64,000 nt of DNA from Lasiodiplodia sp. COLG20 (Eukaryota; Ascomycota; Dothideomycetes; Botryosphaeriales; Botryosphaeriaceae): assembly GCA_009801085.1 (NCBI GenBank), contig VNWV01000004.1:558001-622000 (forward strand). The letters are read 5' to 3'. Shown here piece after piece: positions 36,226 through 62,391 of this stretch. The notes under the pieces were generated by a model. That model was not told the origin of the DNA, made no database searches, and was given only the letters and a program-made list of their open reading frames with translations. How positions within the stretch are numbered: position 1 is the first letter of the stretch; every line of letters starts with the position of its first letter. The translations under genes were made by a program, and so were the position numbers.

Positions 36226-39200
36226 TCACACAGCATAAACATTAACATCATCCACTCTAATTGTCGTGAACCCCGTCGTCCGCGAGCAATGAGCAGAGAT
36301 GGAAATAACAGTATTGCTATTCGCACCAGAGATATAGTTCCCGCCAAACGCCCTGAAGACGTCTTCGTCGGGGCTGATGTCCTGATCGCCCGACACGGGG
36401 TTCCCGTTCATGTTGACCGACACAGTACACGAACCCACCCCGCCGACGCGGCGAGCCTTGAAGTTTACGCCGTAGGCGGTGCGCGGCTTGAGTTGGATGG
36501 TCTGGGCCAGGGTGAAGGAGGGGTAGCCGGCGGGGAGGTTGATGGCGCTGCATATATGCTGTCAGTACCGGATCGTGCTGGAAGAGGGGGAGGGTAAGAC
36601 TTACGCGCTGTTGTGGAAGATGTTCGCATCGCCGTCGGCGTTGAAGTCGATGGTGGCGCCGCCGGCCGCACCCGCGGACTTCCACGGCGGTGCGGTGTTG
36701 CCTACGACGGTGTCGAAGCGGCCGTTTTGGACGAGCTGGACGTTGGGCGGAGTGAAGCAATCTCCCAGGTAGCAGATGCCGGATGTGCACTGGATTGATG
36801 ATGTCAGTGCCCGGGGGCTTTCCACAGGGGAACAAACGATAGGGCTGATTCCAACTTACGACATTGCCACAGGCACCGCAATTATTCGGGTTATCCTGAA
36901 GACTGAGACACGTATCTCCACACTGATCTCCCGGACACCCACACCCGCTGCCCTTGCATGTCGTTCCTTTCGGACACTGCCAAAACGTCAGCTATACACC
37001 CCCTCAGCGTTCAACCTTCTGTCACTCACCTTCCTCCCACATCCACCACAATTGTTCGCATCCAAGCCCAGCGCGACGTTCACACACTGCAGCGCAGTCC
37101 CGCTTGCAGAAGCACTGCACAGCGAGGTGCTAGTATCGCCGCAGTGACAGGTGCAGCGGGCCGAGTTGGATGCGTAGAAAGCGTCGCCGGCGAAGGCCCG
37201 GACTGCGAAGGCATAGCTGGCACCACTGATGCGGCACGCGGCCCACTGTGCGGCCTGCGCGGTGCTTGGGTACCGCTGGTCACACGTGCTCGCTATGCAG
37301 CTGCCCAAGTCCGAGTTGCAGCTATCGAAGGTTCCCGTATCGCAATTGTCTGGTTGAGGGGGAAGCAGGTTAGTTGGATGTGCTTGGGTAGGGATAGGGG
37401 AGAGGGGATATAGGGAGGCGCTTTTCGTTGGTACGACCGTTCGTGAGGTGCTGTATGTACATGGGTGGAAGTGTAATAGTGAGAAGGGGAGGAAGTGTGC
37501 AAGTATGGGTAGGTCAGGGCATTGTCCTGAAGCAAAGCTTACCAAAGCAGAGATCATGCGAATTACAGCACCCCGTAAAGTCAAAAGTCGGCACCTTCGC
37601 ACCGCCCATCTGCGCGCACGTCCCATTCGCCATCGGCTGCCGCGCACCAGGCTTGACGGTGCTGAGCAATCCAGCCGGCGCAGCCGGGCAGCGCGGGTAA
37701 GCAGGCCCAGAAGCACCAGCATCATCGCCACCGTCCACACCGTCTGCACCATCAGCCCTCCTCTCCCACCTCGGCCGGCGGAGCCGCTGCTCCCACAAGT
37801 TCCTCCTGCTCCCCCTCTTTCCCTTATTCTTCTTCTTCGGCGTGAACACCCCCGGACTCGCCGCCGCCGCCGCATCAGCATCAGCATCAGCCGCCGCATC
37901 CGCCTCATTCTCCGAATCCTCCACCGTCTCGGCCTTCGCCGCGGACACGGGCACGACGCCAGCAACGGGCAGCACCTTGATGAAGTCGTCGGGCGACAGC
38001 GGCTGATTGATCGTCGTGCCGCCGACGTTCGGATCCGTCGTCACCTGCCACGGAAAAGTCTCGTCGTCGCGGTCGACGAGCGGGGCCTGCGTGAAGACCT
38101 GGACGAAGCCGTCGCAGTTGACGGTGAAGGCGGACGTGGTGACAGCCAGGTTGTCGCCGTCCAGGTCCGCGGCGAAGGGGCCGGTGGAGAGGTCGGTGAG
38201 GATGAAGGTGCCGTCGGGCTTGAGGGCGACGAAGCGGGGGTAGTCGCCGTCGAGGACGAGTTCGTGGGATCTACCGTGGTTTGAGTGGGGGGCTTTCTTT
38301 CTTTCTTTTTTTTCTTTGGGGGGGTTTTTTATAGGAGCAGAACGTGGAAGAGAGTGTGGTGGAAGACAAGAGGAGAGAGAGAGGTGTTGAGACTCACTCT
38401 GAGTAAGGAAACCCCCATGGATCCGGCTCGAAGTGGAAGGTGGTGAGATTGAGTGGTGTGCCTGTGCCGAGGAATTGTGCTTGCAGGGTTACCACTTGGT
38501 CGTTCGTGAGCGCTCCGATGCTGTTGCCAAGGTTGTACAGGGCTTTCCCGTCCTGCGTCACCAGGTTCTGTTGTGATATGTGCGTCAGTGATGTTGCCCA
38601 AACGTCGGAGGGAGCGGAATCAAGGCTCACAAATTTCTGTTCACTACGCAGGTCAAACACACAGTTTGGTGTGGCTGTCGGAAGCTTGACCGTTGCAACC
38701 GTTGCGTTTGCGGTGAAGGTAGGGAGATCGACTTCGGTGTATGTGTATGAGGCCAGGAAGGCATTTACGTCCGAGGGTGTGGGGGCACCAGGCACCGGGA
38801 TTGATGGTGGGAGAGATTGAGATGAAGGTGACTAGAGAGTATGAGTTGCTGATAGAGTATGGCAGTGTGATTCGGACTTACCACTGGCGATAACGACACT
38901 TGCGATGATGACACTTGCGGCGACGACGCTGGAGGTGACGACGATACCAACAGTCCCGGTAAAATAAGATTACTGACAGCAGAAGACAAAATCGAGATAG
39001 CTGGAACGCCGAGTGAGAGATCGACACCAAGCGACAGTCCGAGATCTGGAGCATTAGTTGCCGCGGAGCTACCGACTGCTATCGAGGGCGCGATTGACGT
39101 TAGAGCACTTGCTGTGGAGGAGCGAGAAATCCCCGGTGGGAGGCCAAGATCACTGACTGGAAGTGGAACCGCGGCGCTTCCAGATGCTGAGACCCCTATT

Positions 39201-42200
39201 AATGCAGAAGTACCAATCGACGAAGACTGAGGAAGAGACATTGAGGAAATACTTCCAACTGGGACAGAAGACCCGGGAGCAGATACTGGTGGAAGGCTCG
39301 CAACTGAAGTAGAGGAGCTAGAAGTAGATACTGAAGATAGAGATGCAGATAGGGAGAGACTTCCAATTGAAGTTGAAGATGCGGCTGTAGGTCCTGAAGA
39401 GGCGCTTCCAATTGGGACAGAAGACTGGGCAGCAGATGAAGAGGTAGACGGAGAGAGAATTTGGAATGAAATAGCCGAGCTTCCCAATGACGCTGCGGAG
39501 ACTTCCGACGTAAGTGCCTGTGGTGCTGATGAAGATAACAGCGAGCTTTGCCCGGCAGGTGCAGGACTGCTAATGGCCGATGCAGGTAGAATCGGCAATG
39601 AAGACGTGCTGCTGCTGACTGGCGTCAATGAACTTGCAACAGCAGGTAAGCTAATTGATGGCTGCTGGACTACCGGTGAACTTGAAGAAGGCTGAGTATT
39701 AAATGTTGGTGAAAATACTCCCGAGGAAGAGAAAACTTGGAGGGGTGATGAAGCTAATTGAATGGATGATGACACGGAAACCTGGGTATTAAGAGTCGGC
39801 GAAGGGGGTATTGAAGAAGACGGAGCCACATCGGACGATGAAGGTGGTACGGTAGATGATTGGATCGAAGCGGGAAGGACAAGCGGTGTTGATGAAGAAA
39901 ATACTTGAGAAGGAGCAACAGGTGCTGAAGAGCCTGGAAGGGGTTGGGAAGTAGAAGATGATATTGGAATGGCTGTATTTTGCAGCAAGCTCGATGAAGA
40001 TACGCTTGAAGAGGAAACTTGGGCAGATGTTGATGATGATACAAAAGGGGCCAACGTGGATGACGAAGCCAATGGCGCTATACTTTGCGGCAATGTAGAC
40101 GAGGATGGCTGTGAAGGAAGGACAGCAGAGGAGCCGACAGGTATGGAAGAGCCTCCGATGGATAGAGAAGTAGAAGAGGACAGTAATGGAGCTGCAGATC
40201 CCGGTGATCCAGATGGAGATAGTCCGGATGGAGAGGAAACTCCGGCAGACGTGAAAGATGATTGAGAAGGTGGCGAGGAGGAAGATGGAGACTGCAAAGG
40301 GGCTGTGCCTGCCACTAATGGTGATGATGATGGTTGTAAAGGAGAAACTATGACTGTTGAAGATGATTGAATAGGCGGTACCGTTGACTGCGACGAAGGT
40401 GGACCTCCCACCAATGCTGATGAAGATGGCTGCGAAGGAGAGACTCCCGAGATTGAAAATGATGCAGCAGGGGGCGCCGTTGCTGACGACGATGATGAGG
40501 TTGTACCTCCCGCTCCAGCTAATGCTGATGGTGGCGGGCCCAGTGGAATCAGGTTGCTGTTGGATGCAGCCCCGCTTCCAGTGGCAGCAGTCGAAGATGA
40601 CAATACCGACAATGCAGCTGACGAAGGTAAGGTGGCGATGGAAGCTACCGAACTCCCTGTATTGGTTGATGAGGTTCCAATATTCAATGCTGTTCCCGCA
40701 GATATCGCTAAAGATGAACTAGACGAGGATACAGGCGGTAAAGAGGATGCGGGTGTCGATGATAAGGCAGCCGCTAAAGACGATAGAGGTGCTGAAGAGG
40801 ATATGACAGCTGACGAGGATACGAGTGGTGAAGCGGATAGTGGCGTTGAGGATGATAATGGTGCTGGAGATGACACGATCGTTGAGGAGGAGGTAGCTGG
40901 AGAAGATACAACCGCTAAAGAGGATAGGGCGTTTAAGGCGGATGAGAGGACTGAAGAGGACACAGACGCTGAGGAGGGCGAGGGTGCCGAAGATGACGCA
41001 GGTGTCAATGATGAGATACCCGCGAAAGAGGGCAAAGGTGCCGAAGAGGATACAAGCCCTGAAGCGGATACAAGCGCTGAAGCGGATGCGAGAGCTGAAT
41101 TGCCCAAGAGTGTTGAAGGGGAGGCAGGAATTGAAGAGAATAGGGATAGTGAAGAGGATGAGGCGGCTGAAGGCGATACGAGTACCGAAGATAACGCGAG
41201 CGTTGAAGATGCAGGCGCTGAAGAGGACAATAGCGCTGAAGAGGATACGAGCGCTGAAGGAAATGCAGCCACTGAAAGGGATGCTGGCACTGAAGAGGAG
41301 CCACCACTGGATGATACCACAGCACCTCCTGACAAAGCACTCGACCCAAACGCAGACCCCTGAATTGTTACTGCCGACGTGCTGCTTGAGATTCCAGGCA
41401 GTGAAGACACAAATAAGCTTGATGGCGGCAAGCTGACTTGGCTTGGTGCAATTGAAGAAGCTTGAGATGAGCCAGAAGCCAGGGCGAAGCTCCCTTGACT
41501 CGGCGCAATAGAAGAAACTTGCGATATATCTGAGTTGAGGATGGATGACGCAACCCCAAAGCCGCTGAAAGGGGATCCAGAAGCAGACAATAAAACACTA
41601 GTTGGACTTTCCAGCAACGCTGAAAAGTCTGAGCCGATTTGCCCTAGTCCAAACGAAGAGAACTGAATGCCACTGGATATCACAGGCAGAGATGAGAGCT
41701 CAGGGTTGCTCAAACTAATATCCGGTAATGATGCCGTGATGCTTATTGATACACCGGGGACTATGGCAATAGCAGTCCCAGGAACGAGTTCACCAGATGT
41801 CGAAGTCGGGGTACCAACATCTGAAGGTGTAGATGTTTCTATGAGCGGCGCTTGTTCGGATGTCGAAAAGGTTTCTGCAGCACTAGATGTTGACGAGAGC
41901 TCGCCTGTTAGCTCGGTCCCAATTTCAAGCCCTGTTGTTGAGGATGAAGAGCTAGTAGGACTCGATGAGAGAATTGCCCATGTGATAGCTAGTGAAGAGC
42001 TTTCTTGTGTCTCTTCTGACAACGAAAGAGAAGGAAAAACAACAGAAGAATCCGAGAGAGAGGAAGACGGAGAGAGAATAATGGACGGGAAAGAAGAAGC
42101 AAAAGCAGAAGAAAATTCAAGAGATGAAGAGGAGGAGGATGATGACGATAAACTGGAAACAAGAGACGATATGGAACTTGAAGTCGACGAAGAAGCTGTA

Positions 42201-43540
42201 CTACTCTCAACTGCAGTAGACTCGCCAATAGCCGGCTGAGCGGAGCTCTGGGATGTGCTCGAAAGTTCTTGGCTGGAAAATGGAAGGGCACCCTGAGTGA
42301 CTGCCGTTGTGCCAGAGGTTCCTGTGCTCGAGGTCGACCCGGCTCGTGACGAGGACGTGGCAGTACTCCGTGCAAGACTAGTCGAGATTTGTCTGCTGGA
42401 CGAAGAAATCCTGGAGGATGAAGCCGATGAGGATCTGCTGCTGAGCCCTGGGCCTATTGATGTTCGGGTGGATGTGGAGACCGCTGAACTAGTACTCGAC
42501 CGTACTATGCTTATGGATAATACCTGTCTGGATGAACTGCGTCGGGAGGAAGACGATGGAACTAGATTGGACAGTCCGGGCGGTATTAATCCAGATCTGG
42601 ATGATGTTGCCAACGAAGAAGATGTTGAAGACGCGGACAAAGTTGTTCTTGTACCCGGTGCGAGATTTGTTTTCGCTGGTGGTATGAAAAGCCCAGATTG
42701 TGTCGCGCTCGAGGTGGTCTCCGAAGTCTCAGAAGATGGAGGGGCGAGAGCCGTGCCCGGTTGTGGTGGTAGAGCTTCAGCCTGTGCCGAGCTTGTTGAA
42801 GACGCCGCACTCTCAGAGGTACTCGAGATGTCTTCGATTGAAACCGAAGGTGTTGGTTTTTCTGACGTCTCAAGGGTAACCTCGGGGGTACTTGACGATT
42901 CATCTCCAGAGGGTGTTGGTTTTGCCGAAGACTCAAGCGTAACTTGTGGGAGATTTGATGATTCATCTGCAGAGGTCGAGCTTGTCGGCTCCTCTGCAGC
43001 CTCTTCAACTGTAGACGAAGATCCGATTGGGTTTGGCTGGAATGAAATTGAAAAGTCATTGAATGTGGTGCTGAAGGACGTTGTTGATGTGGTTGGCGTA
43101 GAATTTGACGAGGCAGAAGTGCTAGGGACAAAGTCCTCCAACGTGGATGACGTCGAGCTCGACGAGATGGACGTGCCACTTGGAGTCTGACCAAAGGTGC
43201 TGGTTGTTTCCGCAACGGATGATACTGTCGGTCCGACCCTTGTACTTGTGGCTTCAAAGTCTGTCGCAGAGGGGTTGGCAAGGGTCGTCTGTGTCGAAGA
43301 TTCGGTAGTGAGAGTCGTATCTGTGACAACGGTATTGAGGAAGGTTGGGGCGTTTGTGACAGGGATTACAACGCTATTGCCGACGCTGAGCAAGCCATTC
43401 TGTGGAATAGGAGTCGACACCAAGACGGGTTGCAGAAGCACGATGGGGCGGATCCGGATGACGATGACTAAACGAGGGTCGTCCGACTGTGCCAGGGCCG
43501 TTGGTGCCAGTAAGGCACCAATTAGGAGGGCCAAAAGCAT
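36226..43540 (-). CDS. Giant secreted Ser/Thr-rich protein with phospholipase A2-like, Cys-rich and lectin-like modules (2233 aa, 8 exons)
   Basis: Exons are 43540-38882, 38831-38631, 38567-38398, 38270-37543, 37349-37030, 36976-36860, 36789-36605 and 36547-36226; all seven joins keep the frame. A signal peptide (MLLALLIGALLAPTALA) is followed by about 1500 residues dominated by Ser, Pro, Thr and Ala, a mucin-like stalk presumably heavily O-glycosylated. A globular domain (about 1560-1760) precedes a segment containing TGCCNSHDLCFDNC (about 1910), the CCxxHD signature of secreted phospholipase A2 with the catalytic His-Asp. Two Cys-rich NNCGxCG repeats come next, then a C-terminal beta-sandwich (VQNGRFDTV to RVDDVNVYAV) like carbohydrate-binding modules. 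I infer a cell-wall or extracellular adhesin/lipase. Enzyme activity is unproven. Confidence 0.8.
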
Positions 43541-44291
43541 GGCGGAAGGTGGTCCGGAGAGTCGATGCCTGGGCTCGGAAAAGACGGCAGCGTTGGCGGT
43601 TCATAAAGACAGAGTTTTATTGCGAGCATGGTGGAATGTGATTGATCCTCATGAAGAATGAGCAATTGGGAATAGTAACGAAGATCACCCATTCTTGGAG
43701 GGCATCTCGTTCCCGACTAGTTGTTGGTTGTGTAACGCACGGCGAGTTTCAGGTGTGGAAGGATTACCCTTTGCGACAGTCCCTGGAGCTTGGCTGTTTA
43801 TATCTCTTACCAGCAATATTACAGCTATTCTTAATATCCCATGGCGATGCATTTTTGGTTCTGCAGTAGGATTGGCTTTTAACCTAGGGCGTTTCCCCAA
43901 CATTGCCTCGTTTCAATTCCACAGTGCATCCCTTTCTGCTTCGTCCGCTTGATATTCGGCCAATATCCTTATTACCAGCCTGCGTTCTGGCCCCGTCGGA
44001 ATTCTCCCCAATGATTCTCTGGAATCTTCCGTTTCATCGGCGATTGGAAATACCAAAAGCGAGCGTGTTCGCACCGTTACATGGGCAGCATTCGCCCCCG
44101 TTACGAAGTGCTCCACCCGACAAAGTCATGCACAGTGGCGTAGACAAACCGCTCGAGTCATGCACCTTCCCGATCAGGTCACCGTTCATGCGGCGCCGAC
44201 CAAACGGGAAACCGACGGCGGCTCGCTAAATATTTATTAACCACCGACTCCCACTTCCTCTGGCATCCAAACAACATCCACGACCAACACA
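43541..44291. promoter_or_regulatory. Divergent region with TATA-like element before the GNAT gene
   Basis: 750 bp with no supported gene between two divergent starts. TATTTATTA at 44231-44239 lies about 55 nt upstream of the GNAT ATG and is a plausible TATA box. Confidence 0.45.
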
Positions 44292-48564: not shown

Positions 48565-50757
48565 TCACACCAGGTAAGCTTCTTTCCACGGGAGGTCTTG
48601 CTGGTCGGTGCAGTTGAAGTTGTGCTTGAATATCCCTAGGAGGTCCATGTAGTCTTTGGCGAATTTGGGTCCCTTCGTGCCGTGCAGGTAGCATTCTCCG
48701 GCGAGAATGTAGGCTGGCACGCCGTCTTCGCTTTCCTCTGGTCTGAGAAGAAACGGGACGCTGGCTCCACGAACGAAGCAGATGACATCGCCAGGACGGA
48801 TTCCTTGAGGTGTGATTGCAAACGAGTCCTTCGTCAGTATGATAGTTCTGCCGGTGGAAAATCTGCGTAGAGCGTCCATGTTCGCTCCATGACCAGACCT
48901 CTCCAATTCTGGCTTGAATGTCTCCCAGAACTGGTCTCGGTCGTGAGTTTGTATACCGGGGACATTTGTGTCTGTATCAGGCTGGACGGGTGGCCAACGC
49001 ACGGGTACCCAGTAGGGCCGCATTATCCGTCCCCGAGAAGAATGTTGCTTCCGTAAGAAGATCCTCGCTGCATCGTGTTTTGTAATGCCCGAAGCATCGG
49101 CAGCCTTGACATGATCCACTTCAAGCATCGACACCCTGAGCCGCTGGCCTTTACCAGTCGATACTGATTCATACTTCGCCAGCCTCGTCACCTTTGAATT
49201 CCATGAAGCGAGGGAATGCAAGTAAGGGTGCCGCGAGTAGTCCGGTACCCATGACGGCAGCCCGGCCAGCGGTATACCCCGGAATCGTGGATTTTCACAG
49301 ATGCCCTGAAATTCGGTAGGAACGAACGGGCTCAGACTTTCTTGGAACAGCTGCACTTGCTCCATTGCAGACTGTGCCAAATCCTGAACTGTTGTATTTT
49401 CCTCTGGGGTCATTGCTGTTGACTTCCGATCAACCTCGGCCTGTAGAGAGCTTACTGCTTCGAGCATTGCGGCGCAGCTTGCTGTGCATGCGGCCGAAGG
49501 TGATTCTCTCTCCAAAATGTTGACCGCCCAATCATATAAAAGCTTGTCATCCTGGCGTTTGGGATTCGGAGAGCCATGCAGACTGATTTCGAGTATCTTC
49601 TTCCTCAATCTGATAGTCTGTTCCAGTTTGAGGCTTGCGTCATTCTCGATCCTCGTCCAACCTTCGGACAACAGTTCCAGATGGCCGTAGGCCCCAATCA
49701 CTTGCCAGGCCACCTCAGTGTACAGCTCTTCAACACGTTTGTTATAGTCCACCGAAATACTGATGTTCTCTTTATTTTTGAAGATACCAAGCAAGGCGTA
49801 CATTCTGTCGCGTTTATCCGTCGACGAGCAAGAACGGGCGATAGTCAGCAATGATGCCAGATCCTTGATTGGTTTTTTGTCGTTATGAGACAGTTGCAGA
49901 GCTCGTGGAAAGTCTTTTTCCATGTTGACGGGATTCAAGCCAAGCGAATATATGTTGCCGAATGATAGGGAACGCCAATCGAGAGTCTCGCCGCCCAGCA
50001 TCACTACCGATCGTTTGCACACAGCCATCTCTTGCAGAACCCACACTCTGGTGAACCATGAAAGGGAGAGTATCCACGACAACTCCCCTTGGAACTGGAT
50101 CCTCTGCTCTTCCGTAAGTTCGGCCGGGTGCGGCGCCTTGTTGCCGCTAGCATCCCGTCTTCGGAGAAAGTCGAACAGCTGTGTGATTTTGGTCCGGTTT
50201 TCGTTCCCCAGATAGACGAGCGTGCGCTCTGCCTGAAAATAAATCCGATTTATCAAAGGTATTTGGACGTTTTTCTCCTCGTTGTCCGCCTGGTTGATGC
50301 AGATGGCGTCGATCCAGAGCATCCGCGCTGTAGTGCGTTTGCGCAGGTTGTGTAAAGCGCACCGGCAGTTCTCTGTTATCTGGAATTGATTGTCATGGAT
50401 GTTGATTGAGCCAGTCAAGCGCTGGCTCCCCCACGTGTAAGATAGAGCCTCGTATTTTGGGGCCGCGGAAATATCTGCGTGGAGAACTTCGCAGCGCAAC
50501 TCTTCTGAGGGCTCTCCTGGAAGCAGCTTCAACACTCGGAACTCTGATGTTGACGCGAGTGGTATATGTTGATAGTGACGTGTTTCAGATCCAGTCTCCT
50601 GGAGTTGTGATTGATGGTGAGGGGTTGTGGGGAGAGAACTCGATAGGGAGGAGCTAACGCGGGGTAGAGCTGAGCCACAGCTGAGACAGAAGCGATCGTC
50701 ATCAAATGTCCGGATGTCCTGTCGCGAGCAGCAAGACGGCGGCATTTTGGAGCGCAT
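48565..50757 (-). CDS. HET-domain protein E (730 aa, single exon), paralogue of HET B
   Basis: ATG 50757 and 50745 are both possible. The N-terminal Cys cluster (CC-x13-C-x2-CG) mirrors that of HET B. The HET core starts at YEALSYTWG (102-110), with ARMLWIDAICINQADNEEKN and WFTRVWVLQEMAVCKRSVVM. A middle Glu/Gln-rich helical insert and the tail GECYLHGTKGPKFAKDYMDL then DLPWKEAYLV also parallel HET B. The start of the neighbouring TatD gene is only 172 bp beyond its stop. I infer an old duplication inside this region with the copies now 25 kb apart and in opposite orientation. Confidence 0.93.
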   Translation of the reverse strand: MRSKMPPSCCSRQDIRTFDDDRFCLSCGSALPRVSSSLSSSLPTTPHHQSQLQETGSETRHYQHIPLASTSEFRVLKLLPGEPSEELRCEVLHADISAAPKYEALSYTWGSQRLTGSINIHDNQFQITENCRCALHNLRKRTTARMLWIDAICINQADNEEKNVQIPLINRIYFQAERTLVYLGNENRTKITQLFDFLRRRDASGNKAPHPAELTEEQRIQFQGELSWILSLSWFTRVWVLQEMAVCKRSVVMLGGETLDWRSLSFGNIYSLGLNPVNMEKDFPRALQLSHNDKKPIKDLASLLTIARSCSSTDKRDRMYALLGIFKNKENISISVDYNKRVEELYTEVAWQVIGAYGHLELLSEGWTRIENDASLKLEQTIRLRKKILEISLHGSPNPKRQDDKLLYDWAVNILERESPSAACTASCAAMLEAVSSLQAEVDRKSTAMTPEENTTVQDLAQSAMEQVQLFQESLSPFVPTEFQGICENPRFRGIPLAGLPSWVPDYSRHPYLHSLASWNSKVTRLAKYESVSTGKGQRLRVSMLEVDHVKAADASGITKHDAARIFLRKQHSSRGRIMRPYWVPVRWPPVQPDTDTNVPGIQTHDRDQFWETFKPELERSGHGANMDALRRFSTGRTIILTKDSFAITPQGIRPGDVICFVRGASVPFLLRPEESEDGVPAYILAGECYLHGTKGPKFAKDYMDLLGIFKHNFNCTDQQDLPWKEAYLV

Positions 50758-51668
50758 CCAACGACGACAAGTCTTGCGCAGCGCTTGAAACGGTCATGTA
50801 GTCCAGATTGGCCTCTCTTATTGCGAGCCGAAGAAGTTGCAATGTGGCTTGAACTAGTGTTGTATCGGGTTTGCTGTGCAGAATCTTGTGGCTGTGCTGC
50901 AGCGGTTAATTCTCCGTCTGCACTTCTGATTCGTTCCCCCACGCCCCACATCTTTCGATATTCATAGCAGCTAAGCTGACACACGCATCCACTTTATGCT
51001 TCCGCTGCCGCTTACTGCATAGGTTTTGTGCGTGGCTGCAACACGTGATATGAACTGAGATTGTAAATTAGTGAATCTATAAAGGCTAAATATTCAATAA
51101 GGATAATAACACGGCATTGAATAACGGCATTCTTGCTTAAACGCTACCAAGATCACACTGTATTATCCTCCTTGAAAGACAAAAGGTCCATCCCTGCACT
51201 TGCTACTATTTTGGGGAGTAACAATGACAACAGAAGCGTAATTGCTTCTCTCCAGTGAATCAATTTGAGAAGAATGAAGACAAGCATTTTACTCGAGGCT
51301 GACACCCTGTGCCCTGTTGATTTCACTGTCTGTGTAGCCATTGTTGCCTACGGTAAAACAGTAATAAGCCGTTGCTCCCTTGCGAGCACGCTACGCTATG
51401 TGTAAAACGCAAGGTTGAATCCGAGCTTGGCAGGTTCATAGCCAAGCAACTCGTCGTACATTCAGGCAGCAGCGGCAGGGTCCGCCTTGTTGTGTTGCAA
51501 TGCCAAGCATGATCCCTTGCGGATTTCCCCACGAAGGGATTCCTGACTATGATAAAAGTGGCTGAGACATGATAAAGCCTGAGTTGTGGGCTCTTGCAAC
51601 TTCTGATCTCTTTCCAGAAGTTTGTTCCTATTGACGCAAGTCTGTATCAACACATCAACTCCGAGACC
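50758..51668. other. Divergent intergenic region between two HET genes
   Basis: 910 bp; AT-rich centre (51050-51130). No supported gene, repeat or tRNA. Promoters of HET E and HET F must lie here. The HET F frame is open upstream to 51594 without an ATG that looks better than 51669. Confidence 0.45.
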
Positions 51669-54113
51669 ATGCCCGATATTCCTGTTGCACCAAACCTACA
51701 GCCACCGCTTCTGAGGCTCCCAATCGACCGCGGATGGTGCCCACGCCAAATTGAAAAACTCGAAAGTGATTTTGATCAAGAAGTCCTTTCTTACCTCAGC
51801 CAACTCGACTGGCCCAGACCGCAAGACACCATCCACGAGGACTGTCGCAATGAAGAGAGGGGAGAGAGTCAAGACGAAGACACATGTCATAAGAACAAAG
51901 AGAGCCAAGATAGGACCGTGTTCCCAGTGAACTGCAAAGCCTTCCAAATCGACGACGAATACGAGCCGAAACACACGACACCAGACTGCAAGTGCGAGTT
52001 CGTCCACGTGGACCGCGAGGAATTAGCCGGCATCATCGACGATGGCGGTGTGCCACTAATCTCCATCGAGGAACATGAAAGCGGCGACATCTCCCTGAGG
52101 GTCGAGGCTCGCAGCGTTAAGTCGCGTTATACGGCCATCTCACACGTATGGCGCGACGGCTTGGGGAACAAATCGCACAACTCCCTGCCCAAGTGTCAGC
52201 TCCAGCAACTAAATGCATGTCTCAAGAACATGCCGAAACCCAAGGAGAGTGGCTGGGGAAAAGTCACGCCATGGACGTATGCGGATTGGCGTCGACAGAA
52301 CTACTCCAGGAACCCTTGTCCACCTCCACTGTTCTGGCTCGATACGCTTTGTATCCCCGTGGGGCCGAAAGGGAGCGAAGGGGACCGGTTGAGAGGGGAA
52401 GCCATGAGGAATATGGCTCTGATCTACAGCTCACCGGTACAAGTCCTTGTCCTGGACGCAGAGCTGCAGATGTGCTCAACCGAGAACAAGGACGCAGTTG
52501 AACTTCTCGCTCGGATCGTGTGCAGCAGTTGGATGACCAGAGCCTGGACCTTGGCCGAGGGAGTCCTGGCGCGCGAAATTGTGTTTCAGTTCAAAGACAT
52601 GGCCATCGATCCTCTGGGGTCTTGGTCTCCGCTGGGAGAGGATCCGAAGTTGAGCACAAGCATCCGGTTCCCCAAAGGCCAACAGTACCGCAAGATCTAC
52701 AAAGCTCTTTTCGGCTCCCTGTGGAATGGGCTGCGCCAAGGCTGGAAGGGCCTCGTCACCCCCGGAATGTATGGATCGGCATCTATCAATTTTCCTACCG
52801 CAAGAGCCTCTCCCAACGAACGTATTTTGACAGAATCGAATGAGTATTGCCGAGAGTTGCCGAAGAGTCCTCCTGGCACACTCATACCTACGAAAAATAT
52901 GGAGGTGTATCGAGTCAATCAATTGGTAGATGCTTGGAATGAACTGGCTTTCCGAACGACCACGAGACCTGAAGACATTCGTGTCATTCTTTCAAGCATT
53001 CTGGACTTCAAATTCGATCCAATTACGAAAGAAGGCCTTCTGGAGGATTTCATCGAAGCTATGATATTCAGCTTCGACATGCTACCGGTATCTCTGCTTT
53101 ACAATAGCGGCAAACGACGTAATCAAGATTCAGCACACAATAACGGATGGGTACCGATTGAGCTAAGCAAGAGCCGTTTGAAAACTTCACCGACCATGAA
53201 TTTGTGTACTGACGGGATGGAAATTACAATCAGCAACAAGCCCAAGTCGCCAAATGACCCCCATGTCATGCTCCTACCTGATTTCATCCTTGAACGGGAA
53301 ACCTACCAGCTTGTTGATCCGTTGACAGGGAGAAGACATACGCTACAGCTCCATGGAAATCGCCACGAAGAGAGGCCTCTTAACTACTGCATGATTCTGG
53401 AAGATCCGCTGGAAGAAAATGGTTGCCACCCGATCCGCGGAGCTCTGTTCACCGTAGGGGAGGTACCACGATTATCTGCGTATGAAGAACGCACTTGTTC
53501 CTACAAAGCTGAAAAGTTGAACGTTTCTTTCGTCTGCCCACTGGAACTCCGTACGGCTGAACTCTCACAAATTACCCCAGAGAGCCACCTCGAAGCCATT
53601 GGAGGCATATGTAGACTTCGGTCAGCTCGTATCAGCATACTTTATGGTAAGTACCTCCAATTTCCACGAGTTCTTTTATGTAGAATCGCGTTCTTGTTAC
53701 CACGCAGGTACCTGAAACATCCCATAGACAAACCCGCCAACTTCGAGAAACTCGTACGCCGTCGTATATGCGCATCATTTCCCACCGGGTTGACGTTCTT
53801 CGCCATGATGATTGTCATGGGGATTGCAGCTTACGTTTGGAGACCCTCCGGAGACAGCACAAACGACATCAAGTCGATCTATTGGGGTTGGGCTTTTAAC
53901 GGCCTCATATTTTGCTTCGTTATTTTTGGCGCATTCATCCAGCCTCCGATCGACTACTATTATTGGATTTCATCATTTGAGAACAATCATCTCCAACCAG
54001 GCACTTCATCGGCTTTCGGACTTAGGCGCCCAAGGAATGCACCGCAGAGCCGGTTTAGTAGAGAGCCTTGGGAAGCGCGAAGGCGCTTGCTTGACAGTTC
54101 CCTGTCTGTATAG
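51669..54113 (+). CDS. HET-domain protein F with C-terminal membrane segments (814 aa)
   Basis: ATG 51669 (MPDIPVAPNLQPPLLRLPID) was chosen as the first good start. The HET core begins YTAISHVWRDGLGNKSHNSL (about 155), with LFWLDTLCIPVGPKG and SSWMTRAWTLAEGVLAREIV; it is a divergent subtype with a long insert between motifs. Near the C-terminus are two hydrophobic helices, FPTGLTFFAMMIVMGIAAYV (about 705-725) and WAFNGLIFCFVIFGAFI (about 745-765), so the protein is probably membrane-anchored. A consensus donor at 53647 and acceptor at 53707 lie within the open frame; splicing there would shift the frame to a stop before the helices, giving a soluble form. Confidence 0.88.
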   Translation: MPDIPVAPNLQPPLLRLPIDRGWCPRQIEKLESDFDQEVLSYLSQLDWPRPQDTIHEDCRNEERGESQDEDTCHKNKESQDRTVFPVNCKAFQIDDEYEPKHTTPDCKCEFVHVDREELAGIIDDGGVPLISIEEHESGDISLRVEARSVKSRYTAISHVWRDGLGNKSHNSLPKCQLQQLNACLKNMPKPKESGWGKVTPWTYADWRRQNYSRNPCPPPLFWLDTLCIPVGPKGSEGDRLRGEAMRNMALIYSSPVQVLVLDAELQMCSTENKDAVELLARIVCSSWMTRAWTLAEGVLAREIVFQFKDMAIDPLGSWSPLGEDPKLSTSIRFPKGQQYRKIYKALFGSLWNGLRQGWKGLVTPGMYGSASINFPTARASPNERILTESNEYCRELPKSPPGTLIPTKNMEVYRVNQLVDAWNELAFRTTTRPEDIRVILSSILDFKFDPITKEGLLEDFIEAMIFSFDMLPVSLLYNSGKRRNQDSAHNNGWVPIELSKSRLKTSPTMNLCTDGMEITISNKPKSPNDPHVMLLPDFILERETYQLVDPLTGRRHTLQLHGNRHEERPLNYCMILEDPLEENGCHPIRGALFTVGEVPRLSAYEERTCSYKAEKLNVSFVCPLELRTAELSQITPESHLEAIGGICRLRSARISILYGKYLQFPRVLLCRIAFLLPRRYLKHPIDKPANFEKLVRRRICASFPTGLTFFAMMIVMGIAAYVWRPSGDSTNDIKSIYWGWAFNGLIFCFVIFGAFIQPPIDYYYWISSFENNHLQPGTSSAFGLRRPRNAPQSRFSREPWEARRRLLDSSLSV

Positions 54114-56607: not shown

Positions 56608-59600
56608 ATGGCGTCGTTGACCAGGCGGAAGACACTCCCCCTACCAGAGGCCCCGGGGCCCAAAAACACTGTAATCAGCTCCAAAAAGACTGGCACGACG
56701 TCCAAAAATACTGGCATCAGCTCCGAAAATGCCGGCGCCATGTCCCACAATCATGGCATCAACTCCAACAACCGTGGAACCAGCGTCAGCAACGCTGGTA
56801 TCATCATTGGTCAGCAAATTGGTAGTATCAACAGTACGTGAATGCCGGCAATTTTTCCCCTCGCATCGTTGTGATCTGCGAAATAGACGCGAGTTTTCCA
56901 CCGCTAACTTTTTTTTCCCCGCGTCGTAAGAATACTTCACCACCATCTCTGACAAGACGTCCCATAAGAGCTTTGCTGAATCGAGCTTTACGAAGTATAA
57001 GAATTTGAGGTTTCATGAAACGTGTCAGTGGTTGCTGGAGGAGGAAAGCTACAAAGAATGGGCCAAGTGTATCCGGTGCCAACAGCCACCGGTCGGCGGT
57101 TCGCCGTGGGCTCTGGCTGAGATCAAAAGTATACGTATTTCGGGAAAAAGTAAGATAGACCTTGCATCCGTCGGAATATCAACGGCTGACGGTCTGATAA
57201 ACAGTGGGATGTGGTAAATCGACATTGGTGTAAGTTTCGAGTCCGGATTGAAGAGGCTACGCTGATCAGATTCTTGTTTTCGACTGTAGCGCGCACGCGA
57301 TCAAGGAGGCTCAGAAGAAAGAAAAGAAAGAAGAGGGTCACCGGGTGCTCTACTTCTTCGCGAGTAGCTCGAGGGACGTCGACGAGGCCAGGCTGAAGGA
57401 CCTGCAGCCTACGTTCAAGAATGTGCTGCTCACCTTCTGGGAACAGCTCCATGTCGACAAGGATGGCGGCATTGGCGGCACTGTCACCAAGGATCTCAGC
57501 GAGAAAAAACTCGTGGCTGGGATTATCGGAGAGCTCATGGATTCCAAAACCAAACACATCAGCATATTCGTCGACGCGATCGACACATTATCTTCGAGCG
57601 ACCAGAAGAGATTGAATTCAACGTTCCTCGGAGAGTGCAAGAAACAGAACATTCAGGTATGCTTCCTCGCGAGCTACACACAAGATAGCGAAGCGGAGCT
57701 GTCGAACGGCGAGATCTGTGTTACAACGGAAAAAAACAAGGTGGACATGGAGAACTTCCTCCGAGAGAAGCTGAGCGAGAAGATATTGCAGCAGGATGAG
57801 GCCGGGAAAGGTTTGACGAAGGAGGAGAGGGACAAAGTCAGGGAGGAGAATGGCAATGCCAGTGAGGAGAAGGACAAGGACAAGGCCTGGAATGCGTTGA
57901 CGAAGGGGGAAAGAGACGAGGTGCAGGAGATCGTGAAGAAGATCATTGACCGCGCGCAGGAAATGTGAGTATGAATTCTGGTTAGGGAGAAGCTCATCTA
58001 ACGAAATGGTGCAGGTTCCTGTGGGCGGCGGTCATGGTGGACCTTGTCTGTCGCGCACACGACAGAAAGGACAGAGAGCAGGTGCTTGAGCGGCTGTTGC
58101 TGCCAAAATACATCCAAGATGACTATGAGAAGCTGGTAGAGGGGTGGGAGGGCAAGACAGGGCGCGGGCGGCTGGAGGAGTGGCAGCGCAAGTTGGCGCG
58201 GCAGGCGACGGGGCTGCTTGCGCACAAGCAGGGACTGCTCTCGTACGACGCGCTGACGGAAGCACTGGAGGAAGAGTTGCCACAGGCAGTGGCGCAGAAG
58301 AGGGAGGCAGAGGCGCGAAAGCGGGAAGCGAAAAAGGTGACGGAGTGTTGCCGCCCGTTCATCGAGTACGACGACGACTTACGCATCTTCCGCTTCGCGC
58401 ACCCTTCGATGCATAACTTCTTCGTCAAGCGCGACGCCAGCCGTACGGCATTCGCCGACCAGACGCTTGCCTACCTGTGCCGGCCCGCCTTCCGCCGTGG
58501 GCCGTTTGTGGGTGTCGAGTGGTGGGACATGGGCCAGCTTCGACCCTTCCTTGACAGCCATCCCTTCCTGGGCTTCGCGGCTGCCAATTGGGTCGAGGCC
58601 GTGCGCAACAGCAAAGCCGCCAACGGCCAGAACCGCAAGTCGACTCGCAACCTGCTATCCGACCTGTACGGTGCCGACGACAACCTGCTGCTCGCCTTCC
58701 AGGTCTGGCGCTTCGCCGCCCATAGTAAGATTCCTACTCAACTGCGCTCCGCCCACATTTTCAGCTTCTTCGGTCTCTTCGACAACCTTTTTAGTAGCAG
58801 TAGCCGCTTCACTACCGTCCATGATGCCGCCATGACCGACTCGGAGGGCCACAACGCCCTCCACTGGGCTTTGCAAGCCAACGACCAATACACGCGACTG
58901 CAGACGGTGCGCATTCTCATACGAACCGACAAAGCCGCCGACATGATCTGTGCCCGGGGCAGCTCCGACCTGACACCGCTCCACCACGCCGCCCGCCTGG
59001 GAGACGTAGGTGTCGTGCGCCTCCTGCTAAGCCGCGACCCCGAGAAGCGCGCCCTGAACGTCTGCAGCCAGCAATATGGTACTCCCTTAATTATTGGCGC
59101 CGCCCACGGCCGCGCCGACGTCGTTGAGGAATTGATCAAGGCTGGCGCCGACCTGAACGTTAAGTGCGACCTAGGCAACGTGCTGCACGCCGCCGCCGCC
59201 GCCTCCGCACCCGGCAAGGCCGCCCCCGACAAGGCTGCCGCTGATAAGGCCGCCCACGCCTGCGTCGACGCAATTCTGGGCAAGCACCCCAATCCGGTCC
59301 GGCTGGACGTTGACGACCGTAATCTGGACGGCACGCCGCTGCACACGGCCGCCTACCACGGCCGCCAGAGCGTCGTGGAACTGCTGCTCGAAAAGGGCTT
59401 CAGCGCGCGCAAGAGGAGCTGGAAGCATTGCAGCACCATCACTGCCGCCGCCGCCGGCTGCCACAGAGGCACCGACCACAAGCCCTTCATTCGCATCATA
59501 GAGATGCTGCACGACGCCGGCGCAAATGCTCACGCTGCCGGTACCACCGGCTACTTCGCTCTACATCATACCGCCCAGTTCAACCAGCCTGAGATCGCCC

Positions 59601-61174
59601 GTTTCCTGCACAACTGCGGCGCTAAATGCCATCAGAAGAGCACCACTGGTACTCCCTTGGAGATAGCTGCCGCTCAGGGCCACATGGACGTTGCGAGGGC
59701 GCTTTTGCAGCCAAGGGAGAAGAGACAGAGGGCCTACAAGAGGAAGAGGAGCGAGATGCAGAAGCGTCTAGCTGAAAGGGCGCGCAAGAAGAAGGAAGAG
59801 AAGAAGAAGAAGAGCACCTCACAGGAAGAGAGTCTGCTACGCAGGGTTATTCTAGCCGTCTGGGCGCCCATTTGGGACAGCGCTGTCGCCGCCAACAACA
59901 TGGCCCGAATCTACTGGCTAGTCGAACAGTACGAGAAGGCATGCGGCGCTTTCATCCAGCAAAACTCCTCTCGGCACGTCAAAGGACTCGCGCCTTTGGG
60001 TACCGCCGTCTTCAGCTCGGTCGTGGGCCTTATGGAGCGGCCGCGGGAACAGCAACACCAGCAGAGACCTGGCCCCGATCTGCGGCGGAGGGCGAGGCAA
60101 GTGCTGTCGACCACCACCAAGGGGGCGATCAAGCTTTACGATCTCTGGGACACAACCCTCTCCTACTTCCAGCTCAAGGTGCACGACGGCCGCCGCTTCC
60201 GCAGCGACACCACTGGTACCGAATTCCACCCCGGCACGTACGAAGAAATCCTCGACCGTCTCACTGTCGCTGCCGTGCGCATGCTAAGCACGGCCTTCGA
60301 ACACAAAAGTTTCGAAACCGTGTCACCTCTGGCAGAGGCTTGGATCGATGCCCTGCTGGCCATCAAGTCGGTCAGCTTACTGGAAAAGCTTGTCGGGAAG
60401 CGCGCCCTGGAGCTCAAGGTCATCCTCACCAACACTAGCAAGACAGCCGTCGAGAAGCGCCGCGAGGCTGGTATTCTGGCAAAGGTCGGAATCGAGCTGC
60501 TGGCCGTCGCACTGAGGCGGAGCGGTGATGACGCCGGCGCGGCGAGGCTGGCTCGTAGCCTGGCCAAGCTATGGGCCATGGCACTGAACGACGCAGGCGA
60601 TGACACCGCCGACGCCGCCCGTATCGAGGACATCTACTCCGTCTGCAACGCCTTTCTCGAAATGTTCCGTCACGCGTGTGAGCTGCCGTCGTCTAGCACG
60701 AGCGAACGAAGCGAACGCGTCAAACGAGTTCGCCTGCTGACCCTAGTCGGCGCTGAGCTCGTCATTGAGGCCGTCCGGACAGACAACGAGCCCTTGATCA
60801 ACAACATGCGCCGCATGATGGACCTGGGCCGCAAACAAGCAATCACGGCCCGCGTGAAGGATGAACTCGAGGATGTGTTGATGAAAAGACACAATGGTCT
60901 CAAAGATGAACACCCCGAGCTCGTTCAAGATGACAAGGAGAAGCGCGACAGCGTCATCGCTGGGCCGACCCCACCAGTCCAGGATGAGGGCAGCAACGAT
61001 CAGAGCAACGCAAATGAAGGGAGTGAACGTGAAAGCAGCGAAGGTAGCGAAGGCCATTCACCCAACGGTGAAGGCAACGAAGGCAAAGATGGAAAGCAGA
61101 AAACAGATCAGGACGTTGAGAGGAGGAGACTCAGGATCACTCTTCGGATACTGCGGGGAGACCAAGGATGGTAG
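56608..61174 (+). CDS. STAND receptor: amyloid-like heptad N-terminus, NACHT-type NTPase, ankyrin repeats (1434 aa, 5 exons)
   Basis: Exons are 56608-56833, 56931-57149, 57205-57229, 57290-57964 and 58015-61174; introns of 97, 55, 60 and 50 nt all keep the frame. The 25-nt micro-exon completes Walker A (ISGKMGCGKSTL, about residues 144-156). Walker B is SIFVDAIDTL (about 249-256), and AQEMFLWAAVMVD follows as in fungal NACHT proteins. About residues 656-944 are ankyrin repeats (for example SDLTPLHHAARLGDVGVVRL and GTPLHTAAYHGRQSVVELLL). A Lys/Glu-rich coiled linker, a helical region and an acidic Gly/Ser/Asn tail end the protein. Residues 1-75 lack a globular effector and instead hold heptad repeats ending in NAGIIIGQQIGSIN. 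The convergent HeLo gene carries the matching motif, so this is inferred to be its activating sensor. Confidence 0.9.
56662..56832 (+). repeat. Tandem 21-bp repeats encoding xNxGxxS heptads, ending in QQIG motif
   Basis: Seven units of 21 nt (consensus protein KNTGISS) run in frame from 56662 to about 56808: KNTVISS, KKTGTTS, KNTGISS, ENAGAMS, HNHGINS, NNRGTSV, SNAGIII, then GQQIGSIN. The central Gly and preceding Asn are nearly invariant while the other positions vary. Short Gly/Asn-periodic units are compatible with stacked beta-arcs. Units are contiguous with no spacers, so this is not a CRISPR array. Confidence 0.85.
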
Positions 61175-61512
61175 CAGTCACCTTATTTACTGGAACATCC
61201 ACACACAGCTTCGTCTCTTTATTTCTTCCTCTCTTTTCGTTTGCCATATAATTCATGTTTTTTTTTTTTCTCGTTACAGATATTAGAGAGGAACGGGGAG
61301 TGGTTGGATCTTTCCAAGGAATCGGTCAGACGGTACAAACTAATTTCCCTTTGTTTGTCGCATTCATGTTTAAAAATGAGAAGGGCGATGTACAACAAGA
61401 TGTAACTCTTTCTTCTTTCTACGTTCGTTACTGTACTATAGTTTTCTTTTCACTACCAGAAATACCAAACGCAACACAGAGCCACGAGGTTGGAGACAAG
61501 AATCCACATCCG
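61175..61512. other. Convergent intergenic region of the STAND/HeLo pair
   Basis: 338 bp between the stops of the two genes; T-rich run near 61259-61271. It is presumably both 3' UTRs. Nothing else is recognised. Confidence 0.5.
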
Positions 61513-62391
61513 TCAATTGGCGCCGACGCCCCAATGGTTCGTCGTCCCCTTCCCAAAATTGTTCGTGGTCCCAAAGCTGAAGCCCTTCTGACCACCATTC
61601 ACCTGACCAATCTGCTGCCCGTTGATGGTACCGGTATTGCCCATAGTGATGTTAGTGCCGCTTTGGGCGGCCTCGCGCGGCTTCAGCGCCTCGGCGACGG
61701 CGGCATCGAGGTAAGGATCGGACCACTCCTCCTTGGTCACAGCGCCGAGCACCTTGAGGTACACCTTGTTGATGCCCGCGCAGTCGGAGGCGCCCAGCTC
61801 GCACAACCGCCGCTCCTTGGCCGCCTTCTCGGCCTCGTCAGCCGACGGGAAGAGATCCTCGAGCGAGGCGATATTCTCGGATATCTCGGCCACGAAGTCG
61901 TCGAATTGTTGCTTCTTGTAGAAGGCCCACTGCACGCTGTGCGTCGCCTTGACGACCGCCGCTCGCCGCCGACCCAGCGCTGCGCGCAGCTTCGTGCGCA
62001 ACGTGCGCGTCGGCGAGGAGAGATCGTTGGCCGGATCGATCATCCCGCCGTCCTTCTGCGCCGGTTGCATTCTCGCCGCTTGCTCCTGCGCGACGGCGAA
62101 TTGGTCGGCGATGGCCTGGAGGATGTCGCGGGCTTCTTCGGGATTGGCGATGCGCAATGGTGGCGACTGATCATTTGCGCCTGCCTTGGTGAGGGCGGTG
62201 CTGCTGTCGCCGCTGGAGCTGCTGTACAGGCCCGCCGCTTCGCCCCAGCGCGATAGCCGCAGCTGGATGATGTCGAGTTTGATGCGGTGGGAGTTGAAGT
62301 CTTGGTCGAAGGAGCGCGCGATCTGGACGCGCTCGAAGCAGGCGAGGGCCGTGTCGAGGAGGGTTGTTGTGGCGGATATGATGTCGGTCAT
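61513..62391 (-). CDS. HeLo-domain cell-death effector with C-terminal amyloid-like motif (292 aa, single exon)
   Basis: Residues 1-230 are a HeLo (HET-s N-terminal) domain: CFERVQIARSFDQDF and KLDIIQLRLSRWGEAAG match the diagnostic start of the family, and later helices contain FVAEISENIASLEDLFP. The C-terminal 46 residues are Gly/Asn/Thr/Gln-rich with no charged cluster: NTGTINGQQIGQVN (252-265), then a second part with FGTTNNFGKG and GTTNHWGVG. In HET-S the HeLo domain becomes a membrane-disrupting cell-death executor when the C-terminal region is templated into amyloid by the NWD2 receptor. The same motif occurs in the neighbouring STAND protein. I infer the same mechanism; toxicity is not shown. 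Length is close to HET-s (289 aa). Confidence 0.9.
   Translation of the reverse strand: MTDIISATTTLLDTALACFERVQIARSFDQDFNSHRIKLDIIQLRLSRWGEAAGLYSSSSGDSSTALTKAGANDQSPPLRIANPEEARDILQAIADQFAVAQEQAARMQPAQKDGGMIDPANDLSSPTRTLRTKLRAALGRRRAAVVKATHSVQWAFYKKQQFDDFVAEISENIASLEDLFPSADEAEKAAKERRLCELGASDCAGINKVYLKVLGAVTKEEWSDPYLDAAVAEALKPREAAQSGTNITMGNTGTINGQQIGQVNGGQKGFSFGTTNNFGKGTTNHWGVGAN
61597..61638 (-). other. Amyloid-like signalling motif of the HeLo protein, matching the STAND N-terminus
   Basis: These 42 nt encode NTGTINGQQIGQVN. Bases 56791-56832 encode NAGIIIGQQIGSIN in the receptor; nine of fourteen residues are identical and the rest are mostly conservative. The QQIG core resembles the I/V-Q-I/V-G core of RHIM-like motifs. 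This shared short motif at opposite ends of two neighbouring proteins is the evidence for a signalling pair. Confidence 0.8.

What the first reader, a model, noticed from the sequence alone, without database searches (positions are those of the whole stretch)
56608..62391. Candidate amyloid-templated cell-death pair: NACHT/ankyrin receptor and HeLo effector share a QQIG motif
Seen directly: the receptor N-terminus (56791-56832) encodes NAGIIIGQQIGSIN and the effector C-terminus (61597-61638) encodes NTGTINGQQIGQVN, 9/14 identical, in adjacent convergent genes. The effector N-terminus is HeLo-like (RLSRWGEAAG) and the receptor has an intact P-loop and ankyrin repeats. Established: in Podospora NWD2/HET-S, and in PP/RHIM-like and sigma pairs, a STAND N-terminal motif templates the amyloid fold of a neighbouring HeLo-type executor. 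Inference: this is a complete receptor-executor system with its own motif, which I do not match to the classical HET-s repeat and which has a RHIM-like core. Ankyrin rather than WD repeats would be the sensing part.
Basis: partly seen in the sequence, partly recalled or inferred. Interest (0 to 1): 0.93.

Follow-up and report, generated by a model that had tools for sequence, protein, structure and literature searches.

The report
Fungal death pair sharing RHIM-like motif
Two neighbouring genes of a fungus look like an alarm receptor and the self-killing protein it switches on through a shared sticky peptide, a local variant of a signalling type already known in fungi; the same genome also holds a protein kinase with that peptide, which, if confirmed, would resemble the kinase step of animal necroptosis.

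Summary
Exon 1 of a NACHT-ankyrin receptor (NAGIIIGQQIGSIN) and the tail of a convergent HeLo protein (NTGTINGQQIGQVN) match at 9 of 14 places; among 669 ORF products of the window no other exceeds 7, and 0 of 5000 shuffles reach 9. The pair recurs in Botryosphaeriaceae: 6 of 8 GQQIG effectors have a receptor relative on a contig of identical length; the 2 of those 6 receptors whose predicted N-terminus is present carry GQQIG. The motif appears to descend from the known PP (pseudopalindromic, RHIM-related) class: GQQIG effectors nest beside HeLo proteins that pass Pfam's PP model, but a PP-core profile does not recognise the window's copies. HeLo-PP/NLR pairs are in print, so this is a new variant of a known kind. 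The genome holds two further HeLo/NLR pairs, each with its own matched motif. Unexpectedly, an unlinked protein kinase on contig C54 carries the effector-type motif at its N-terminus; my paper searches listed no such fungal kinase. Its conservation, and amyloid formation by any of these motifs, could not be tested.

The parts
56608..61174 (+). NLR receptor gene, 5 exons: 56608-56833, 56931-57149, 57205-57229, 57290-57964, 58015-61174 (1434 aa)
   Evidence: GT-AG introns, open frame; predicted proteins P0023 and P0024 have the same joined sequence across the exon 1/2 junction
56660..56768 (+). 21-bp minisatellite coding for a heptad SxNxGxx, running into the motif
   Evidence: Tandem Repeats Finder, periods 21 and 42
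56791..56832 (+). receptor-side motif NAGIIIGQQIGSIN (residues 62-75)
57017..57668 (+). NACHT-type nucleotide-binding domain (Pfam NPHP3_N residues 105-283; P-loop split over exons 2-3)
   Evidence: PF24883 7.4e-11; PF05729 4.8e-4 (under its cut-off); coordinates converted from residues
58859..59404 (+). ankyrin repeats (span of the best stretches listed, residues 664-845; the call counts further Ank stretches without giving their places)
   Evidence: PF12796 8e-31, 5 stretches
61513..62391 (-). HeLo effector gene, single exon, 292 aa
61828..62379 (-). HeLo domain (residues 5-188)
   Evidence: PF14479 3.3e-27; Foldseek 1.1e-7 to 2.2e-7 to the HET-s/HET-S N-terminal domain (2wvq, 2wvn, 2wvo)
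61516..61671 (-). effector tail, residues 241-292, predicted disordered (pLDDT under 50)
61597..61638 (-). effector-side motif NTGTINGQQIGQVN (residues 252-265)

Best explanation
The two genes are a receptor-executor pair of the fungal amyloid-signalling type, in a Botryosphaeriaceae branch of the PP (RHIM-related) motif class. Proposed mechanism: a ligand binds the ankyrin region of the NLR (inferred); the NACHT domain binds nucleotide and oligomerises (inferred from the domain); clustered N-terminal GQQIG motifs fold as an amyloid seed (inferred); the seed templates the disordered GQQIG tail of the neighbouring HeLo protein (inferred from the shared motif and the known pairs); the HeLo domain then inserts in the membrane and kills the cell (inferred from HET-S). 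Shown here: the two domains, adjacency, the shared motif and its presence in relatives on both partners; supported by a tree: its descent from PP.
For: Domains. Motif match over chance. Pair conservation: 6 of 8 GQQIG effectors (P0002, P0003, P0005-P0008; not P0001, P0004) have a receptor relative on a contig of the same length; of those 6 receptors the 2 with a predicted N-terminus both carry GQQIG. A profile of 15 of the 22 relatives' effector tails (left out: the near-copy P0001 and six without a GxQxG tail; the window excluded), run on 4424 sequences, ranks 6 of the 7 receptor N-termini known to carry such a motif above every decoy. Descent from PP: tree of 27 HeLo domains, Ses_B over its cut-off in P0009 and P0011, and PMC8086366 equates Pfam Ses_B with PP (passage). 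The three own-genome pairs match best within pair, scores 54, 51, 74 against 18-35 off-diagonal. In the window pair both partners have I at -4 where 12 of 15 aligned copies keep N (the third with I is P0001; P0029, near-copy of P0028, not in the table).
Against: The seventh receptor, the window's own, is missed by the effector-tail profile (E about 7e2) and by the PP-core profile. The receptor exon is a N/G-rich minisatellite, which raises the chance of a match, and the gapped shuffle gives only p about 0.004. Pair specificity is not clean across species: receptor P0023 scores 52 against the effector of the second C34 pair, close to its 54 with P0007. No RNA evidence for splicing. Amyloid formation untested. 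Contig identity is read from equal contig lengths, not from the contigs themselves. Four of the six co-located receptors have predicted proteins that start downstream of exon 1, so they do not test the motif.
Confidence: 0.8

Rival explanations
1. The GQQIG match is a chance product of a N/G/Q-rich minisatellite in receptor exon 1 and a N/G-rich effector tail; the two genes are simply neighbours.
For: 21-bp repeat in exon 1; effector-tail profile misses the window receptor; a shared 5-residue run arises in 52 of 5000 shuffles; 21 sites in the whole genome encode GQQIG, and 18 of the 19 outside the window show, by eye, no motif flanks.
Against: 0 of 5000 shuffles reach 9 of 14; GQQIG stands at the same place in four other receptors and eight other effectors, also in receptors with only about two heptad-like units (P0023, P0024, by eye).
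Confidence: 0.08
2. The motif is an assembly or localisation signal that brings the two proteins together without an amyloid switch.
For: Nothing here shows amyloid; the window copies lack N at -4 and are not recognised by the PP-core profile.
Against: Position (NLR N-terminus, disordered HeLo tail), descent from PP motifs and prion behaviour of PP motifs in Podospora (PMC7885112, abstract and passages).
Confidence: 0.1
3. The HeLo protein is mainly an allorecognition (heterokaryon incompatibility) factor that acts as a prion-like determinant without the receptor, as in the HET-s case.
For: Several homologues are named small s or HET-S proteins (names only); the window is rich in HET-domain ORFs.
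Against: Receptor relative on a contig of equal length for 6 of 8 relatives; motif on both partners.
Confidence: 0.1

Closest known systems
HeLo-PP / NB-ARC-TPR pairs of Arthroderma (PP motif first defined; PMC3321046, section 8 read)
   Same: HeLo executor with C-terminal motif, adjacent NLR with the motif at its N-terminus; core GxQxG
   Different: Here NACHT-ANK, core GQQIG, no N at -4 or +4 in either window copy, not recognised by Ses_B or the PP-core profile
HELLP/PNT1 of Podospora anserina and Chaetomium globosum (PMC7885112, abstract and passages)
   Same: NLR/executor gene cluster with RHIM-like motif
   Different: HELLP has a HeLo-like (HELL) domain and PNT1 is NB-ARC-TPR; the window protein is HeLo PF14479 with a NACHT-ANK receptor
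NWD2/HET-S (PMC5485727, parts 1-2 of 4 read)
   Same: HeLo domain; same receptor-executor logic
   Different: HET-S has two 21-aa repeats; here one short motif; no PF11558 match
sigma cluster, het-eN/sesA/sesB (PMC3321046, passages)
   Same: HET-eN is a NACHT-ankyrin receptor whose motif was first missed because of an unnoticed 5' intron
   Different: No PF17106 match
Mammalian RIPK1/RIPK3-MLKL necrosome (recalled, and PMC12881547 passages and section 18), for the C54 kinase
   Same: Kinase with a RHIM-like motif plus a 4-helix killer protein in one organism
   Different: Motif is N-terminal (C-terminal to the kinase domain in RIPKs, recalled); nearest solved kinases are Nek7, GCN2 and DAPK3 (E 1e-12 to 1e-11), with no RIPK among the 60 chains shown; no phosphorylation evidence

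Membership tests
PP (pseudopalindromic) amyloid-signalling pair | same motif at NLR N-terminus and at C-terminus of an adjacent executor | tested here: met
   relatives
PP (pseudopalindromic) amyloid-signalling pair | core G-x-Q-x-G | tested here: met
   both window copies
PP (pseudopalindromic) amyloid-signalling pair | flanking N at -4 and +4 (NxGxQxGxN) | tested here: not met
   window receptor I/I, effector I/V. N at -4 in 7 of 7 effectors P0002-P0008; N at +4 in 1 of those 7 (P0004)
PP (pseudopalindromic) amyloid-signalling pair | match to Pfam Ses_B PF17046 or to a PP-core profile | tested here: not met
   (window copies not recognised; of P0002-P0008 only P0007, E 0.034, and P0008, 0.18, fall under E 1)
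PP (pseudopalindromic) amyloid-signalling pair | common descent with PP effectors | tested here: met
   9 GQQIG rows one clade (100/99), in a set with P0009 and P0010 (95/90) and then P0011 (92/89, under the tool's 95/80 mark); the branch joining P0009 alone is weak (90/39); P0009 and P0011 over the Ses_B cut-off
PP (pseudopalindromic) amyloid-signalling pair | amyloid/prion formation and templated killing | not testable with these tools
RHIM | G-(I,V)-Q-(I,V)-G core (as given in PMC7885112) | tested here: not met
   window GQQIG: Q at -1
HET-s / HRAM | PF11558 match; two 21-aa repeats in the executor | tested here: not met
   one search found nothing in the genome, but its controls did not ring either, so that search alone is weak; one motif copy only (by eye)
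sigma motif | PF17106 match | tested here: not met
HeLo domain executor | PF14479 and HET-s N-domain fold | tested here: met
fungal NACHT-ANK NLR | P-loop NTPase plus ankyrin repeats | tested here: met
RIPK-like kinase with amyloid motif (C54 gene) | complete protein kinase domain | tested here: met
   PF00069 3.4e-33 (model 10-258 of 263); HKD, DFG and APE motifs seen (motif names recalled)
RIPK-like kinase with amyloid motif (C54 gene) | motif of the executor class | tested here: met
RIPK-like kinase with amyloid motif (C54 gene) | conservation in other species | not tested

The most novel reading that the evidence does not exclude
The GQQIG amyloid is not only a two-party NLR/executor link: it forms a network that includes a protein kinase. 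The C54 kinase carries an effector-type GQQIG motif (GTQEGYNYGQQIGVMRAQKGFRIG) at its N-terminus, which the six related kinases examined lack. It would be drawn into the same amyloid as the HeLo protein, a fungal counterpart of the RIPK3-MLKL necrosome and an amyloid-signalling architecture outside NLR/executor pairs. Two other HeLo genes in this genome have an MLKL-like layout (HeLo plus a weak kinase-like region), each lying head to head with a kinase gene related to the C54 kinase.
Probability: 0.28. Interest if true: 0.88.

Novelty: new variant of a known kind. Interest (0 to 1): 0.62.

Why it matters
One genome holds three HeLo/NLR pairs whose motifs match best within pair, which makes the evolution of amyloid-signalling specificity testable with natural variants. 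The motif-bearing kinase is a candidate answer to a question printed as open in PMC7889193 (passages): whether signalling amyloids occur in fungi in pathways that do not depend on NLRs, given that searches so far were biased to the NLR/executor architecture. PMC5485727 (part 2 read) notes that PP and RHIM do not sit at equivalent positions in the fungal and mammalian pathways; a fungal kinase with a PP-derived motif would narrow that gap.

Tried and rejected
HET-s (HRAM) and sigma membership: no profile match. Strict PP membership by profile: rejected. A second GGTCAGCAAATTGG site (C2:479994) is not a receptor by its look (GQQIG in a 342-aa open frame without N-rich flanks). The idea, from recall, that the Pro/Gln-rich ORF at 63787 was a metacaspase was wrong: it is a HET-domain protein. 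A search from the N-terminal 95 residues of P0023 returned P0023 and P0024 only, out of 37 candidates. A scan for N-[YF]-G-[QL]-Q codons gave 20 sites; two are the second C34 pair and the C54 kinase; of the 18 others fetched, one encodes a stop and 17 were read by eye: none has the flanks of the motif, though L057 (C6) has NYGLQYG in a 70-aa frame, not followed up.
Full report
WHAT IS THERE. The window is G000:C34:558001-622000 of a 43.5-Mb, 88-contig genome. Its closest named protein relative is from Lasiodiplodia (P0001, 91% identity), family Botryosphaeriaceae; the species itself is not given. A five-exon gene at 56608-61174 (+) encodes a 1434-aa NACHT-ankyrin receptor, and a single-exon gene at 62391-61513 (-) encodes a 292-aa protein with a HeLo domain. 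An AlphaFold model of the latter is a helical bundle with a disordered tail (residues 241-292, pLDDT under 50), and its four Foldseek matches with E under 0.001 are all HET-s/HET-S N-terminal domains (1.1e-7 to 2.2e-7). By sequence the best solved match is the same domain, 9.1e-13.

THE SHARED MOTIF. In the window, receptor exon 1 is the best of 668 other ORF products (9; next 7), and 0 of 5000 shuffles of the tail reach 9. A gapped BLOSUM62 test is weaker, p about 0.004. Exon 1 also contains a 21-bp minisatellite (56660-56768) coding for a heptad SxNxGxx that ends in the motif, so exon 1 by itself is not strong evidence. Conservation is stronger. GQQIG stands in the tail of 8 of 22 homologous effectors (P0001-P0008) and in the N-terminus of 4 of 10 receptor relatives (P0023, P0024, P0028, P0029); of the other six receptors, four (P0025, P0026, P0027, P0030) lack an exon-1 equivalent in their predicted protein and two (P0031, P0032) are distant and lack it. 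Six effector/receptor relatives lie on contigs of identical length (22019, 18206, 8297, 19989, 938811 and 11081 bases), two of them on contigs of only 8 and 11 kb. P0001 and P0004 have no such receptor hit.

A TEST WITHOUT THE WINDOW. A profile was built from 15 of the 22 relatives' effector tails (left out: the near-copy P0001 and six without a GxQxG tail) and run on 4424 sequences: six-frame ORFs of the window and of fetched loci, ten receptor relatives, the window's two proteins and P0001. Apart from effectors, the first hits are P0029, P0028, the C23 receptor, P0023, the second C34 receptor and P0024 (E 0.0037 to 0.099), all ahead of the first decoy (E 1.3). The window's own receptor is the one miss among the seven receptors known to carry such an exon.

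DESCENT FROM PP. PP was defined in 2012 as a 17-18-residue pseudopalindrome on HeLo and other executors and on the adjacent NLR (PMC3321046, section 8 read); its core is NxGxQxGxN (PMC9815663, section 6 read), and Pfam's Ses_B is used for PP (PMC8086366, passage). In a tree of 27 HeLo domains the 9 GQQIG rows are one clade (100/99), in a set with P0009 and P0010 (95/90) and then P0011 (92/89), whose tails are PP-like; the branch that joins P0009 alone is weak (90/39). P0009 and P0011 pass the Ses_B cut-off. Yet a PP-core profile made from nine PP tails gives no match on the motif of either window copy, and of P0002-P0008 only P0007 (E 0.034) and P0008 (0.18) fall under E 1. N at -4 is kept in 12 of 15 aligned copies; the three with I are the window receptor, the window effector and P0001. 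Both partners of one pair thus share a change absent from the other aligned copies. This suggests co-change, from one pair only.

THREE PAIRS IN ONE GENOME. C23 holds a canonical PP pair: a HeLo protein with Ses_B over its cut-off (1.1e-6) and, head to head, an NLR with TPRs in which a frame upstream of the NTPase reads FSGEQNCGVQIAHNSGF (Ses_B E 0.25, under the cut-off). At C34:1577252 lies a HeLo gene with tail GTNYGQQSTIHNGSVEIN, beside an ankyrin gene (Pfam; P-loop VGCGKS read by eye) with the N-terminal frame GDNYGYQTTIHNGNTTIS. Full gene models of these receptors were not built. Within-pair scores (54, 51, 74) exceed every cross-pair score (18-35) among the three. Against clean specificity, the relative's receptor P0023 scores 52 with the second C34 effector, close to its 54 with P0007. 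The C21 HeLo gene, next to a NACHT-type ORF, has a different tail.

THE UNEXPECTED KINASE. A whole-genome scan for codons of GQQIG gave 21 sites: two are the window pair. Of the other 19, 18 show by eye no motif flank and one does: C54:27748 downwards encodes MANSSTSPQVVGTQEGYNYGQQIGVMRAQKGFRIGSAIARG followed by a complete protein kinase domain (378 aa after removal of one 51-bp intron; PF00069 3.4e-33). The effector-tail profile, which did not contain it, finds it at E 2.3e-5 (N-terminal 75 aa) or 3.6e-4 (full length) for 4424 sequences; the PP-core profile does not (E 0.28, aligned beside the core). A six-frame search of the whole genome with a 48-aa tail of P0004 returns two hits only: the window effector (9.9e-8) and this kinase (0.016); P0004 was chosen after seeing that it scored second best, so this E-value is somewhat favourable. 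With the kinase N-terminus shuffled, 0 of 2000 reach the score with P0002, P0004, P0005, P0009 or P0023, 2 with P0028, 3 with P0007, 17 with the window effector, 165 with P0011, 147 and 30 with the second C34 effector and receptor, 508 with the C23 effector, and 367 with the window receptor, that is, no significant match to the last. No HeLo locus was found on C54; an NLR-TPR ORF lies about 10 kb away, and most other ORFs of the contig were not scanned. Six related kinases lack the motif: four of the five best hits outside C54 (701-base stretches; the C45 hit was not read) and the two beside HeLo genes.

MLKL-LIKE GENES. Among 12 HeLo matches, those at C1:5575916, C2:95168 and C12:3176829 continue into a kinase-like region that scores below Pfam's kinase cut-off (PF00069 in all three, DUF7580 in two), the MLKL layout; calling it a pseudokinase is inference. 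At C1 and C12 a kinase gene related to the C54 kinase lies head to head with them, about 1 kb away hit to hit; the neighbours at C2 were not examined.

HOW IT MOST LIKELY WORKS. Receptor oligomerisation clusters the N-terminal motifs, which fold and template the HeLo tail; the HeLo domain then permeabilises the membrane. Every step after the shared motif is inferred from the NWD2/HET-S and HELLP systems (PMC5485727 parts 1-2 of 4; PMC7885112 passages).

NOVELTY. HeLo-PP/NLR pairs are in print (PMC3321046), and PMC4986451 (passage) places the three fungal prion motifs, without saying which, on NACHT-ANK among other receptors. The pair is therefore a new variant of a known kind. For the kinase: PMC9815663 started its executor search from domains that include Pkinase, looked for motifs in executor C-termini and NLR N-termini, and reported PP with pore-forming and enzymatic executors (sections 19 and 24 read, passages); a motif at the N-terminus of a non-NLR kinase lies outside that design. 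My ten paper searches listed no fungal kinase with such a motif; they cover only open-licence papers, and of most papers I saw listings or passages.

Noticed in passing
G000:C54:26564-27748 (-), L051:8564-9748: Protein kinase gene with an N-terminal GQQIG motif of the effector type; a candidate RIPK-like partner of the HeLo protein.
   Followed up: partly
L026 (G000:C1, HeLo hit 5575916-5576467) and L028 (G000:C12, HeLo hit 3176829-3177476): HeLo proteins ending in a weak kinase-like region (MLKL layout), each head to head with a kinase gene related to the C54 kinase; a third such HeLo protein is in L027 (C2), neighbours not examined.
   Followed up: partly
L014 (G000:C34:1577001-1587000): Second HeLo / NACHT-type ankyrin pair with its own matched motif (NYGxQ[ST]TIHNG on both partners).
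   Followed up: partly
L015/L016 (G000:C23:495794 and 497206): Canonical PP pair: HeLo with Ses_B and an NLR with TPRs with a PP-like motif in a frame upstream.
   Followed up: partly
L017/L018 (G000:C21:149596-150444): HeLo gene whose tail differs from PP, next to a NACHT-type ORF on the other strand; the HeLo match has one stop inside, perhaps an intron.
   Followed up: no
window 9888-11561, 23004-25331, 25448-27490, 27840-30395, 48568-50793, and 63787 onwards: Five HET-domain ORFs over Pfam's cut-off in 64 kb, a weak sixth at 51576-54110, and one more running off the end; the genome holds at least 150 HET matches. The pair lies in a HET-rich region.
   Followed up: partly
window 56660-56768: 21-bp coding minisatellite in receptor exon 1 (heptad SxNxGxx); the predicted proteins P0023 and P0024 show by eye only about two such units, so copy number may vary.
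   Followed up: partly
window 38768-43600 (-): 1611-aa open frame with no Pfam match at E 0.001, in a stretch of strong GC skew.
   Followed up: no
L057 (G000:C6:235859-235873, -): NYGLQYG in a 70-aa open frame; PP-like core without the usual flanks.
   Followed up: no
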